From Chitinophagales bacterium (GTDB lineage Bacteria; Bacteroidota; Bacteroidia; Chitinophagales; Chitinophagaceae): a DNA stretch of 64,000 nt. Position numbers and translations under genes: made by a program. The stretch spans positions 145,584 through 209,583 of the forward strand of contig JAFLBM010000005.1 in the NCBI GenBank assembly GCA_017303455.1, read 5' to 3'. The notes under the pieces were generated by a model. It was not told the origin of the DNA, ran no database searches, and saw only the letters and a program-made list of their open reading frames with translations. Positions 45,488 through 47,190 of the stretch are shown piece by piece (position 1 is the stretch's first letter; each line of letters begins with the position of its first letter).

Positions 45488-45500
45488 ACTTTCCTAATTT

Positions 45501-45647
45501 TTAGTTTTCTGGAATCCAAGTTACTTTACCAGATTTATAAATCCATCGTTTAGATGGAATTCCTTCGTCTCCAAATATTATATATCTGTTTTTGTAGCTT
45601 GTCATATTAAGGCGAATTGGGTTGCTCTTATAAAACAGCCCTATCAT
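45501..45647 (-). CDS. Small orphan protein (48 aa) at the end of the SLATT-like unit
   Basis: The ORF starts MIGLFYKSNPIRLNM and continues TSYKNRYIIFGDEGIPSKRWIYKSGKVTWIPEN; a start at the inner ATG (45605) is equally possible. It is in the same frame as, and 12 bp downstream of, the proline-rich ORF. The aromatic/basic alternation (RYIIFGDE, KRWIYKSGKVTWIP) suggests a small beta-hairpin domain. No family is recognised. Its only support is clean coding character and position, so confidence is modest. Confidence 0.45.
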   Translation of the reverse strand: MIGLFYKSNPIRLNMTSYKNRYIIFGDEGIPSKRWIYKSGKVTWIPEN

Positions 45648-45659
45648 CAATAAAAGGAT

Positions 45660-45818
45660 TTACCCTTCTTTCTTTGGAGGTGGAGGCGGAGGCGGGGGAT
45701 TTTCCATCCTTGGAACCTGACCTTTTTGGTCAGGGATTTTATGCTCCCTGAATTTTTCGGGTACTGGTGGTTTTGGCGGCGGCGTAGGCGGCGTCTTAGG
45801 CTGTTGTGATTTACTCAT
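45660..45818 (-). CDS. Proline-rich small protein (52 aa), coupled to the upstream membrane gene
   Basis: The product reads MSKSQQPKTPPTPPPKPPVPEKF with a central charged stretch (REHKIPDQKGQVPRMEN) and eight consecutive prolines before a KKEG tail. The ATG overlaps the TGA of the preceding gene as ATGA (45815-45818), a standard sign of translational coupling. It is highly disordered, with polyproline helices that could bind SH3-like, GYF or membrane partners. The G+C of this ORF is locally high because of CCN codons. No family is recognised. Confidence 0.6.
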   Translation of the reverse strand: MSKSQQPKTPPTPPPKPPVPEKFREHKIPDQKGQVPRMENPPPPPPPPKKEG

Positions 45819-46309
45819 TGTGGGTAATATGTGTTTATATAATTTCTGACATCTTGGTCAGTTTTATCCTTTAGAGATTTGTAAATTCTGATATTTATTT
45901 TATTATCGAGCTCTTCTATCTTCTTTGAAGATTCTCTCAATTCAAATAGTCTTCCTTTTGCAGTTTCCTCGGTCATTGATTCATAGTTACTGAAGAGTTT
46001 TTCTAATTCTTGTTCCCAATCTAAATACATCAATCTTAACTTACATATTTGCTGCATATCATTTTCAGAGTGCATGATATGCTCTTCCAGTAAACTGGCT
46101 ATTTGAACTACTCCAATTGCTGAGAGCATTATTATAGTCGGTATTTTGAAGTCTTTAAAGGCTGAAAAAATACCTCCTGCAGAAAAGATAATGGTCAAAA
46201 TTTTAAACCATTTTTTTACTTTCCTTTCCCTTTTTAAGTATAGAATCAAATACTCACCGCCGAATTTGGCATTTAGGAAATCATACCAAATTGTGTTCCT
46301 AACATTCAT
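45815..46309 (-). CDS. Two-TM membrane protein, SLATT-like (164 aa)
   Basis: Starting at ATG 46309 (MNVRNTIWYDFLNAKFGGEY), the protein has an amphipathic N-terminal helix and a basic segment (LKRERKVKKW). Two TM helices follow at about 35-51 (FKILTIIFSAGGIFSAF) and 57-74 (PTIIMLSAIGVVQIASLL). A long charged helical cytoplasmic tail follows (EHIMHSENDMQQICKLRLMYLDWEQELEKLFSNYE, LFELRESSKKIEELDNKI). This order of basic helix, two TMs and a long helical tail is that of SLATT-domain proteins, membrane effectors found with nucleotide-second-messenger defence systems. No cyclase is present here. Longer translation from GTG 46378 is possible. The DNA is A+T-rich. Confidence 0.65.
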   Translation of the reverse strand: MNVRNTIWYDFLNAKFGGEYLILYLKRERKVKKWFKILTIIFSAGGIFSAFKDFKIPTIIMLSAIGVVQIASLLEEHIMHSENDMQQICKLRLMYLDWEQELEKLFSNYESMTEETAKGRLFELRESSKKIEELDNKINIRIYKSLKDKTDQDVRNYINTYYPQ

Positions 46310-46353
46310 AATCCGAATATACCAAGAACAAGAATAGGTATGCAATATAGTAG

Positions 46354-46378
46354 GTGAAAACCTGTACCTGGTTTTCAC
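46354..46378. promoter_or_regulatory. 9-bp hairpin upstream of the SLATT-like gene
   Basis: GTGAAAACC (46354-46362) pairs perfectly with GGTTTTCAC (46370-46378), loop TGTACCT. It lies 45 bp before the proposed ATG (46309). It may be an operator or leader hairpin. If the gene instead starts at GTG 46378, the hairpin is coding. Confidence 0.45.
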
Positions 46379-46423
46379 AATAGAAGCAGAGCTTTTATAA
46401 GAGTTTAGTTTCGGCTTTATTTA

Positions 46424-46577
46424 ACATAATGTAAATTATAAGAAAAGAATCTGATTTAATATACAATAGTGCGCCCCGAAGTTGCGATTTTTTCAGTTCA
46501 CCTTATTTGTTGGCAGTTACCAGAAAAAATCGCAACTTCGGGGCGCAAAGGAAGTTTTCTTATAATATACGTTATGT
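46424..46577 (+). repeat. 154-bp double inverted repeat, attC-like
   Basis: The outer arms (46424-46446 and 46555-46577) are complementary over 23 nt with two mismatches; they begin ACATAATGTA and end TACGTTATGT. The inner arms (46470-46494 and 46523-46547) are perfectly complementary over 25 bp, with a 28-nt loop. Nested arms with short terminal ACATAAY/GTTATGT boxes resemble the R''-L''...L'-R' plan of integron attC sites. A related outer box occurs again at 47147-47170. Origin as a miniature inverted-repeat element is the main alternative. Confidence 0.8.
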
Positions 46578-46705
46578 GTGAAACCCCTTCGGGTAAATTG
46601 GTTGCTAAGAGAAAAAAAAGAAACCTGCGCTTCCGGCGTGAGAACTTTAAACAGATCTACTGATTAGTATTGCGTATCGTGTGGATTTAAACATCTGAAA
46701 ATATT

Positions 46706-46915
46706 ATGGTATATTCTTTTTACACGATTGATAGTTCCGAAGTACCCAGAAATCCTAAACTGGCATTCAAGTTAGAGTTAGAAAATAAGCCCAATAAAGG
46801 TGACTACATTTCTCATGATGCCAAATTGTATGTTGTTAACTTTTTGGTCTATTCTGAAAAAGGAATTATGATAGTGGTTGCTCAGGATTCCTTTCAGTTA
46901 AATGTAGCTTACTAA
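46706..46915 (+). CDS. Orphan small protein (69 aa), cassette-like position
   Basis: MVYSFYTIDSSEVPRNPKLAFKLELENKPNKGDYISHDAKLYVVNFLVYSEKGIMIVVAQDSFQLNVAY looks like a compact beta-rich domain (the last segments alternate hydrophobic and polar residues); the family is unknown. It is the only plus-strand ORF between the attC-like element (ending 46577) and the next related box (47147). It overlaps the convergent 46866-47150 ORF by 50 bp, so at most one may be real. Confidence 0.5.
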   Translation: MVYSFYTIDSSEVPRNPKLAFKLELENKPNKGDYISHDAKLYVVNFLVYSEKGIMIVVAQDSFQLNVAY

Positions 46916-47150
46916 CAATTCCTGATTGGATTTCTTTTAGTAAGTTTAACGCATCAAATGCGTCTTTCCGGGTTTTAAAATCAACAGGAATAGTATATGC
47001 TACATCGAAGAGATGTTGTAAATATTGTGACCCCCGCTCACCAATTTTCGTAGACGGCTGCGCCGATTTAATACGCCTTGTATTTTCTTTTTTTGCCTGC
47101 TTGCATTTTGTTGCAAACAACTTACAAAATGCCGATAACCAATTGAACAT
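46866..47150 (-). CDS. Orphan small protein (94 aa), convergent with the 46706 ORF
   Basis: The ORF begins MFNWLSAFCKLFATKCKQAKK, with its ATG inside the ACATAAC box (47147-47153). It is basic at the N-terminus, then has a helical stretch (GSQYLQHLFDVAYTIPVDFKTRKDAFDALNLLKEIQSGIVSKLHL). There is no signal peptide or known motif. The 50-bp tail overlap with the 46706 ORF, and the lack of a recognisable promoter, keep confidence low. Confidence 0.4.
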   Translation of the reverse strand: MFNWLSAFCKLFATKCKQAKKENTRRIKSAQPSTKIGERGSQYLQHLFDVAYTIPVDFKTRKDAFDALNLLKEIQSGIVSKLHLTERNPEQPLS

Positions 47151-47170
47151 AACGTAGTTTACATTATAAG
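47147..47170 (+). repeat. Third ACATAAYGTA...ATTATAAG box
   Basis: ACATAACGTA, then six bases, then ATTATAAG. The box matches the left outer arm of the 46424 element apart from a five-base insertion, and matches the right arm in reverse. It is in the same orientation as the left arm, so the segment 46578-47146 sits between an R'-like and an R''-like box. Confidence 0.55.
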
Positions 47171-47190
47171 ACTAAAATTCATCCAAACCA

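What the first reader, a model, noticed from the sequence alone, without database searches (positions are those of the whole stretch)
46424..47170. attC-like double inverted repeat and cassette layout without an integrase
Seen: a 154-bp element with outer boxes ACATAAT/GTTATGT and a perfect 25-bp inner stem, then a small plus-strand ORF, then another ACATAAC box in the same orientation at 47147. Known: integron attC sites have R''-L''...L'-R' pairing and flank cassette genes. Inference: this is a CALIN-type cassette. The boxes deviate from RYYYAAC/GTTRRRY by one base and the inner stem is longer than usual.
Basis: partly seen in the sequence, partly recalled or inferred. Interest (0 to 1): 0.6.

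Follow-up and report, generated by a model that had tools for sequence, protein, structure and literature searches.

The report
Tiny Xer-integrated gene cassette at dif
A 728-bp stretch with a small gene appears to have been inserted into the bacterium's own chromosome-separation site (dif) by the host's XerC/XerD enzymes, through a folded single-strand hairpin like that of the cholera-toxin phage; because it is the size of an integron cassette and not of a phage, it looks like an integron-like way of moving genes that needs no integron integrase.

Summary
The inverted boxes are real but are not attC. The left box is the chromosome's single dif site (46419-46446): the same sequence occurs about once per genome across Bacteroidia, at the GC-skew turning point. 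The right box (46555-46582) is an inverted dif-like site, and between them lies a perfect 25-bp stem. The third box (47142-47174) is a complete dif-like site with an 11-nt spacer. Together they delimit a 728-bp insert. Its attP1/attP2 geometry is nearly that of phage CTXphi (spacers 11/6 nt here, 12/7 there; folded region about 150 nt). A same-genus genome has the empty site. Another has two tandem copies of an element with the same sites but an unrelated body, and its inner junction is the predicted free attP. Twenty-three of 172 dif loci carry such folded structures, against none of 52 control segments. In a second type, inserted on the other side of dif, the stem arms diverge yet stay complementary within each element. 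The host has XerC and XerD and no integron integrase. Best reading: a cassette-sized, helper-less IMEX (mobile element exploiting Xer) inserted as folded ssDNA by XerC. Folding and junctions are shown; ssDNA intermediate and mobility are inferred. New variant of a known kind.

The parts
46419..46446 (-). Chromosomal dif, regenerated by the insertion. As read on +: XerD arm ATTTAACATAA, spacer TGTAAA, XerC arm TTATAAGAAAA; XerC-to-XerD orientation is the - strand.
   Evidence: One match per genome in ~100/294 family and 174/296 class genomes, reversed-pattern control near 0; GC-skew maximum of the contig 605 nt away; left arm is the reverse complement of the canonical XerD arm.
46436..47163 (-). 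The inserted element, 728 bp, GC 36% against 43.5% for the window; bounded by the XerC/spacer boundary of dif and of the third site
   Evidence: Comparison with the empty dif of G219 and with G167, G288 and UBA2789 elements.
46470..46494 (.). Left arm of the perfect 25-bp inner stem
46523..46547 (.). Right arm of the inner stem
46555..46582 (+). attP2: inverted dif-like site, XerC arm TTTTCTTATAA, 6-nt spacer TATACG, XerD arm TTATGTGTGAA
   Evidence: Core ACATAACGTATATTATAAG (reverse strand) identical in four elements with unrelated bodies.
46706..46915 (+). Cargo ORF, 69 aa, orphan
   Evidence: No Pfam, PADLOC or NCBIfam match; no homologue in 243 other family genomes.
46866..47150 (-). Possible second cargo ORF, 94 aa, convergent with the first; its ATG lies in the XerD arm of the third site
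   Evidence: Open frame only; no match anywhere.
47142..47174 (-). Third site: element XerD arm ATTGAACATAA and element 11-nt spacer CGTAGTTTACA (both attP1), joined to the chromosomal XerC arm TTATAAGACTA
   Evidence: TTATAAGACTAAAAT is identical to the empty-site flank of G219; same site type in G167, G288 and UBA2789.

Best explanation
[quoted passage not shown] In its free form the element would carry one long-spacer dif-like site (attP1, 11-nt spacer) and one inverted dif-like site (attP2, 6-nt spacer) on either side of a perfect hairpin. Folded as single-stranded DNA, attP1 pairs with attP2 and makes a double-stranded site that XerCD can bind. XerC exchanges one strand with dif at the XerC-arm/spacer boundary, and replication or repair completes the insertion. 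This regenerates a proper dif on the left and leaves a long-spacer, presumably inert site on the right. From the junctions, the strand that recombined is the window's minus strand, which by GC skew is the lagging-strand template on that side. Unlike known elements of this kind it is not a phage: it carries one or two small orphan ORFs and no replication, packaging or recombinase gene, so it behaves like a gene cassette whose 'attI' is dif and whose 'integrase' is XerCD. SHOWN by sequence: sites, fold, junctions, empty site, relatives, XerC and XerD genes. INFERRED: single-stranded intermediate, XerC catalysis, present-day mobility, source of the single strand, cargo function.
For: dif identity: one copy per genome and skew maximum; dif polarity relative to skew conserved in 133 of 157 loci, p = 2e-19. 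Folded element. Empty site in same-genus G219, where the Bax1-I gene flank and the XerC-arm flank AAGACTAAAAT are the same as in the window. Same-genus G167 has two tandem 807-bp copies (one SNP in 788 nt) whose inner junction is exactly the predicted free attP1. Four elements share attP sites while their bodies are unrelated. Folded inverted-dif structures at 23/172 dif loci against 0/52 controls. Within-element complementarity of diverged stem arms in type B elements, 0 of 20,000 permutations as good. XerC and XerD encoded, integron integrase absent. Geometry matches CTXphi: spacers 12/7, ~90 nt apart, ~150-nt forked hairpin, one new functional dif after insertion (PMC3089051, PMC5357621).
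Against: No excised or circular form was seen, and no experiment exists. The 3 nt next to the XerC cleavage point match imperfectly between attP1 (TGT) and this dif (TTT). No helper phage with this attP was found, so the source of single-stranded DNA is unknown. The family sample was drawn by similarity to the query, so the frequency is not a population estimate.
Confidence: 0.8

Rival explanations
1. It is a decayed or deleted remnant, or a helper-dependent satellite, of a dif-integrating ssDNA phage (microvirus, finnlakevirus or filamentous phage) and not an independent cassette class. Integration chemistry would be the same.
For: ssDNA phages at dif are known in this phylum: BMV microviruses, some with a second dif-like site (PMC3091885), and PhiCjT23-like Flavobacterium prophages (PMC9719478). 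CTXphi has the satellite RS1 (PMC7567579).
Against: At least 12 independent elements are all 0.4-1.4 kb, none with phage genes. No microvirus capsid gene over cut-off in 244 family genomes and only short, marginal Zot-model hits inside 500-540-aa frames in 147. No match to phage records and none of 80 dif-bearing viral contigs showed this structure.
Confidence: 0.3
2. The element entered as double-stranded DNA by ordinary Xer recombination (VGJphi or TLCphi style), and the hairpin has another role such as transcription termination or replication.
For: XerCD can integrate dsDNA circles with one dif-like site (PMC5357621).
Against: The second, inverted site and the coordinated change of both stem arms in type B elements are unexplained; the long 11-12-nt attP1 spacer is the mark of the folded CTX type; no T-run follows the hairpin on either strand.
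Confidence: 0.1
3. Integron attC site and CALIN cassette.
For: Folded inverted boxes, cassette size, orphan ORF.
Against: No integron integrase over cut-off; left box is the conserved chromosomal dif present in element-free genomes; core boxes deviate from RYYYAAC/GTTRRRY.
Confidence: 0.02
4. MITE or other palindromic repeat with chance resemblance to dif.
For: Palindromic, AT-rich, short.
Against: Single copy in the genome; always at dif in relatives and absent from controls.
Confidence: 0.01

Closest known systems
CTXphi-type IMEX (folded ssDNA attP of Vibrio filamentous phages)
   Same: No own recombinase, inserts at dif, two inverted dif-like sites with long (11 vs 12) and short (6 vs 7) spacers, ~150-nt forked hairpin, one functional dif regenerated beside two inert sites, junctions of XerC type, tandem arrays.
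   Different: 0.4-0.8 kb against ~7 kb, no phage or replication genes, orphan cargo, Bacteroidia hosts; a type B set of elements with XerD-side junctions and variable XerC arms sits on the other side of dif.
Bacteroidetes microvirus proviruses (BMV) and PhiCjT23-like prophages
   Same: Insert at dif in the same phylum; BMV4-6 have an additional dif-like site near one end.
   Different: 5-8-kb phages with Rep and capsid genes.
Integron gene cassettes (attC)
   Same: Short unit, one or two small often orphan genes, single-strand folded recombination site, unrelated cargo between conserved sites.
   Different: Recombinase is XerCD, target is dif, core boxes differ, no IntI.
xrs cassettes / pdif modules of Acinetobacter plasmids
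   Same: Adaptive genes flanked by Xer sites.
   Different: Unfolded double-stranded sites on plasmids; the tested xrs cassettes were not excisable (PMC11705084).
TLCphi-type IMEX
   Same: For the type B relatives only: junction on the XerD side and one degenerate arm.
   Different: Type B folds as a hairpin and is cassette-sized, and its degenerate arm is the XerC arm, whereas attP of TLCphi lacks homology on the XerD side.

Membership tests
IMEX, CTXphi type | Located at the chromosomal dif, with dif regenerated | tested here: met
   empty site in G219
IMEX, CTXphi type | Encodes no recombinase; host encodes XerC and XerD | tested here: met
   (XerD over its cut-off; XerC best model TIGR02224 at 298 bits, below its 335 cut-off)
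IMEX, CTXphi type | Two inverted dif-like attP sites that pair in single-stranded DNA around a hairpin | tested here: met
IMEX, CTXphi type | Long spacer in attP1, short in attP2 | tested here: met
   11 and 6 nt here, 12 and 7 in CTXphi El Tor
IMEX, CTXphi type | Homology at the XerC side of the central region (3 nt) | tested here: inconclusive
   attP1 TGT against dif TTT, 2 of 3
IMEX, CTXphi type | Filamentous phage genome with rolling-circle replication and packaging genes | tested here: not met
   728 bp, two orphan ORFs, no phage gene
IMEX, CTXphi type | Integration needs XerC catalysis and a single-stranded substrate | not testable with these tools
   needs bench assay
Integron cassette / CALIN | RYYYAAC / GTTRRRY core boxes | tested here: not met
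   ACATAAT and ACATAAC have A at a Y position
Integron cassette / CALIN | Integron integrase in the genome (not required for CALIN) | tested here: not met
   TIGR02249: none over cut-off
Integron cassette / CALIN | attC covariance-model hit with extrahelical bases | not testable with these tools
   No HattCI or IntegronFinder model; Rfam gave no match
MITE | Several copies at unrelated sites | tested here: not met
   single copy

The most novel reading that the evidence does not exclude
The dif locus of Bacteroidia is an integron-like platform: a class of recombinase-less gene cassettes ('Xer cassettes') with folded single-strand sites is captured at dif by housekeeping XerCD, on the XerC side (type A) or XerD side (type B) of the spacer, and exchanged between cells as lagging-strand or imported ssDNA. 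Such cassettes would be a living form of the intermediate that has been proposed between Xer-exploiting phages and integrons.
Probability: 0.4. Interest if true: 0.85.

Novelty: new variant of a known kind. Interest (0 to 1): 0.72.

Why it matters
CTXphi integration has been called the only reaction resembling cassette recombination, and it has been speculated that Xer-exploiting elements were ancestors of integron cassettes (PMC4792948). Cassette-sized elements with folded Xer sites and orphan cargo, recurring at dif in a whole class of bacteria, would make that idea directly testable and would reveal a gene-capture route that integron and prophage finders miss. In 10 library searches no paper surfaced that describes them; subscription papers and bioRxiv were not held, so this is not proof of novelty.

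Tried and rejected
Integron/attC: rejected. MITE: rejected. Simple terminator: no T-run. The first arm assignment (left arm = XerC) was dropped because ATTTAACATAA is the reverse complement of the canonical XerD arm TTATGTTAAAT; this turned type A into a XerC-side junction. Exact search of attP1 in viral contigs: none. attP2 in viral contigs: one hit, not an element. Most genome-wide attP2 hits outside Chitinophagaceae are the normal dif of Omnitrophota and Planctomycetota. Helper phage search by Phage_F and Zot families: no convincing hit. Of 80 dif-bearing viral contigs three scored; two are perfect 126-nt palindromes (possible assembly hairpins) and one is a weak AT-rich match, none of this type. 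Plasmid and phage records: no match. Conserved body motif GCGTGAGAAC, about 55-60 nt inside several elements: noted, not explained.

Full report
Observation. The finding's elements are all present: inverted outer arms (46424-46446 / 46555-46577), a perfect 25-bp inner stem (46470-46494 / 46523-46547) and a further ACATAAC box at 47147 in the orientation of the first. As single-stranded DNA the region folds at -43 kcal/mol, z = -10.5 against 200 dinucleotide shuffles.

What the left box is. A search of 294 genomes of the same family with the element returned, in 103 genomes and almost always once per genome, only the first ~28 nt: TATTTAACATAATGTAAATTATAAGAAAA. The degenerate pattern TTAACATAANRTNNATTATARG occurs in 174 of 296 class-level genomes, nearly always once, while the reversed control pattern is almost absent. 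In the window's 237-kb contig the cumulative GC skew peaks 605 nt from it, and in 133 of 157 loci the skew is higher on the ATTTAACATAA side than on the other (p = 2e-19). This is the chromosome dimer resolution site dif. Its left arm is the reverse complement of the canonical XerD arm TTATGTTAAAT, so the right arm TTATAAGAAAA is the XerC arm. The genome encodes a XerC-like and a XerD protein and no integron integrase over the curated cut-off.

The insert. The second box is a full inverted dif-like site (XerC arm TTTTCTTATAA, spacer TATACG, XerD arm TTATGTG). The third is another full site with an 11-nt spacer, ACATAA-CGTAGTTTACA-TTATAAG. In same-genus genome G219 the dif locus is empty: dif, whose XerC arm and flank (TTATAAGACTAAAAT, 15 nt) are identical to those of the third site in the window, then the same Bax1-I gene. 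The insert is therefore 46436-47163, 728 bp, 36% GC against 43.5%. Left junction: chromosomal XerD arm and spacer joined to the element's XerC arm (a proper dif). Right junction: element XerD arm and long spacer joined to the chromosomal XerC arm. This is the product expected of a strand exchange at the XerC-arm/spacer boundary.

Relatives. G167 (same genus; public record RBC053) has two tandem copies of an 807-bp element at the same place, differing by one SNP in 788 nt. Its inner junction, ACATAACGTAGTAATACATTATAAGAAAAA, is exactly the predicted unrecombined attP1. Chitinophagaceae genomes IBVUCB2 (G288, ~395 bp) and UBA2789 (~492 bp) have the same arrangement; attP2 has the identical core ACATAACGTATATTATAAG in all four, and attP1 spacers are 11, 11, 11 and 12 nt. 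The bodies are unrelated in sequence apart from short motifs. G104 has a variant with its own cargo ORF. Cargo in the window is a 69-aa and perhaps a 94-aa ORF, both without homologues in 243 other family genomes or in Pfam, PADLOC or NCBIfam. Other cargo ORFs are similarly small; one is DUF1737-like, sub-threshold.

A second type. On the other side of dif, elements of about 0.5-1.3 kb start with ATTTAACATAA, a 5-6-nt unpaired spacer, a variable arm, a perfect hairpin, the complementary variable arm and TTATGTT, and end at dif. Their junctions lie on the XerD side of the spacer. In nine of them the variable arms match their own partner (mean score 23.2) far better than another element's partner (11.8); none of 20,000 permutations reaches the observed sum. 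Arms that change together while staying complementary imply selection for the folded strand. With one fixed detector, 23 of 172 dif loci have a strong folded inverted-dif structure within 2 kb, against 0 of 52 control segments; these z-scores use mononucleotide shuffles and RNA parameters, and the family loci were picked by similarity to the query, so the frequency is indicative only.

Mechanism. CTXphi carries attP1 (12-nt spacer) and inverted attP2 (7-nt), ~90 nt apart, which pair in the single-stranded genome to a ~150-nt forked hairpin; XerC alone exchanges one strand with dif, giving one new functional dif and two inert sites (PMC3089051, PMC5357621). The window element has the same parts with 11- and 6-nt spacers, 108 nt between arms and a ~155-nt fold. 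From the observed junctions the exchanged strand must be the window's minus strand; by GC skew that is the lagging-strand template to the right of dif, and the corresponding strand of type B to the left of dif is likewise the lagging-strand template (inference). Shown: sites, fold, junctions, empty site, tandem junction, covariation. Inferred: ssDNA intermediate, XerC catalysis, mobility. Unknown: source of the single strand, since no replication gene and no helper was found. One imperfection: the 3 nt next to the XerC cut are TGT in attP1 and TTT in this dif.

Relation to known things. It works like a CTXphi-type IMEX and has the layout of an integron cassette. It meets the site-level features of the first and fails its phage features; it fails the box and integrase features of the second. 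dif-integrating ssDNA phages are known in this phylum (PMC3091885, PMC9719478), so a satellite or remnant origin is the main rival. An IMEX ancestor of integron cassettes has been proposed on theoretical grounds (PMC4792948); these elements would be candidates for that intermediate.

Noticed in passing
window 45488-46410: A second, separate insertion of about 0.9 kb (35% GC) lies between the TPR gene and dif; G219 has only ~100 bp there. It holds a minus-strand ORF of 187 aa with a sub-threshold SLATT_4 match (E 1.4e-4) and a 52-aa proline-rich ORF. It may be a type B element that has lost its hairpin.
   Followed up: partly
L161 (G211), up to ~1 kb right of dif: Downstream of a folded inverted-dif structure lies a Gp49/HigB-like toxin gene (Pfam PF05973, E 1.8e-22) followed by an HTH-type frame, possibly toxin-antitoxin cargo; the far end of the element was not found.
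   Followed up: partly
L248, L249, L250 (other Bacteroidia families), 0-460 nt right of dif: Several nested or serial inverted dif-like sites, including a short hairpin ACATAATATCAGATATTGCGACAAACG...CGTTTGTTCAATATCGACAGATATTATGTT, looking like arrays of a third site type.
   Followed up: partly
window 46636 and G091, G167, UBA2789 near dif: Motif GCGTGAGAAC, followed in most by (T)GCGTATC about 25 nt on, lies between the XerD arm and the cargo ORF in both element types; possibly a promoter or replication signal.
   Followed up: partly
L292 and L333 (IMG/VR contigs): Perfect 126-nt palindromes with dif at both ends in viral contigs; real or an assembly hairpin is unclear.
   Followed up: no
L097-L107: The normal dif of Omnitrophota and several Planctomycetota reads ACATAACGTATATTATAGG, close to attP2 of the Chitinophagaceae elements.
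   Followed up: no
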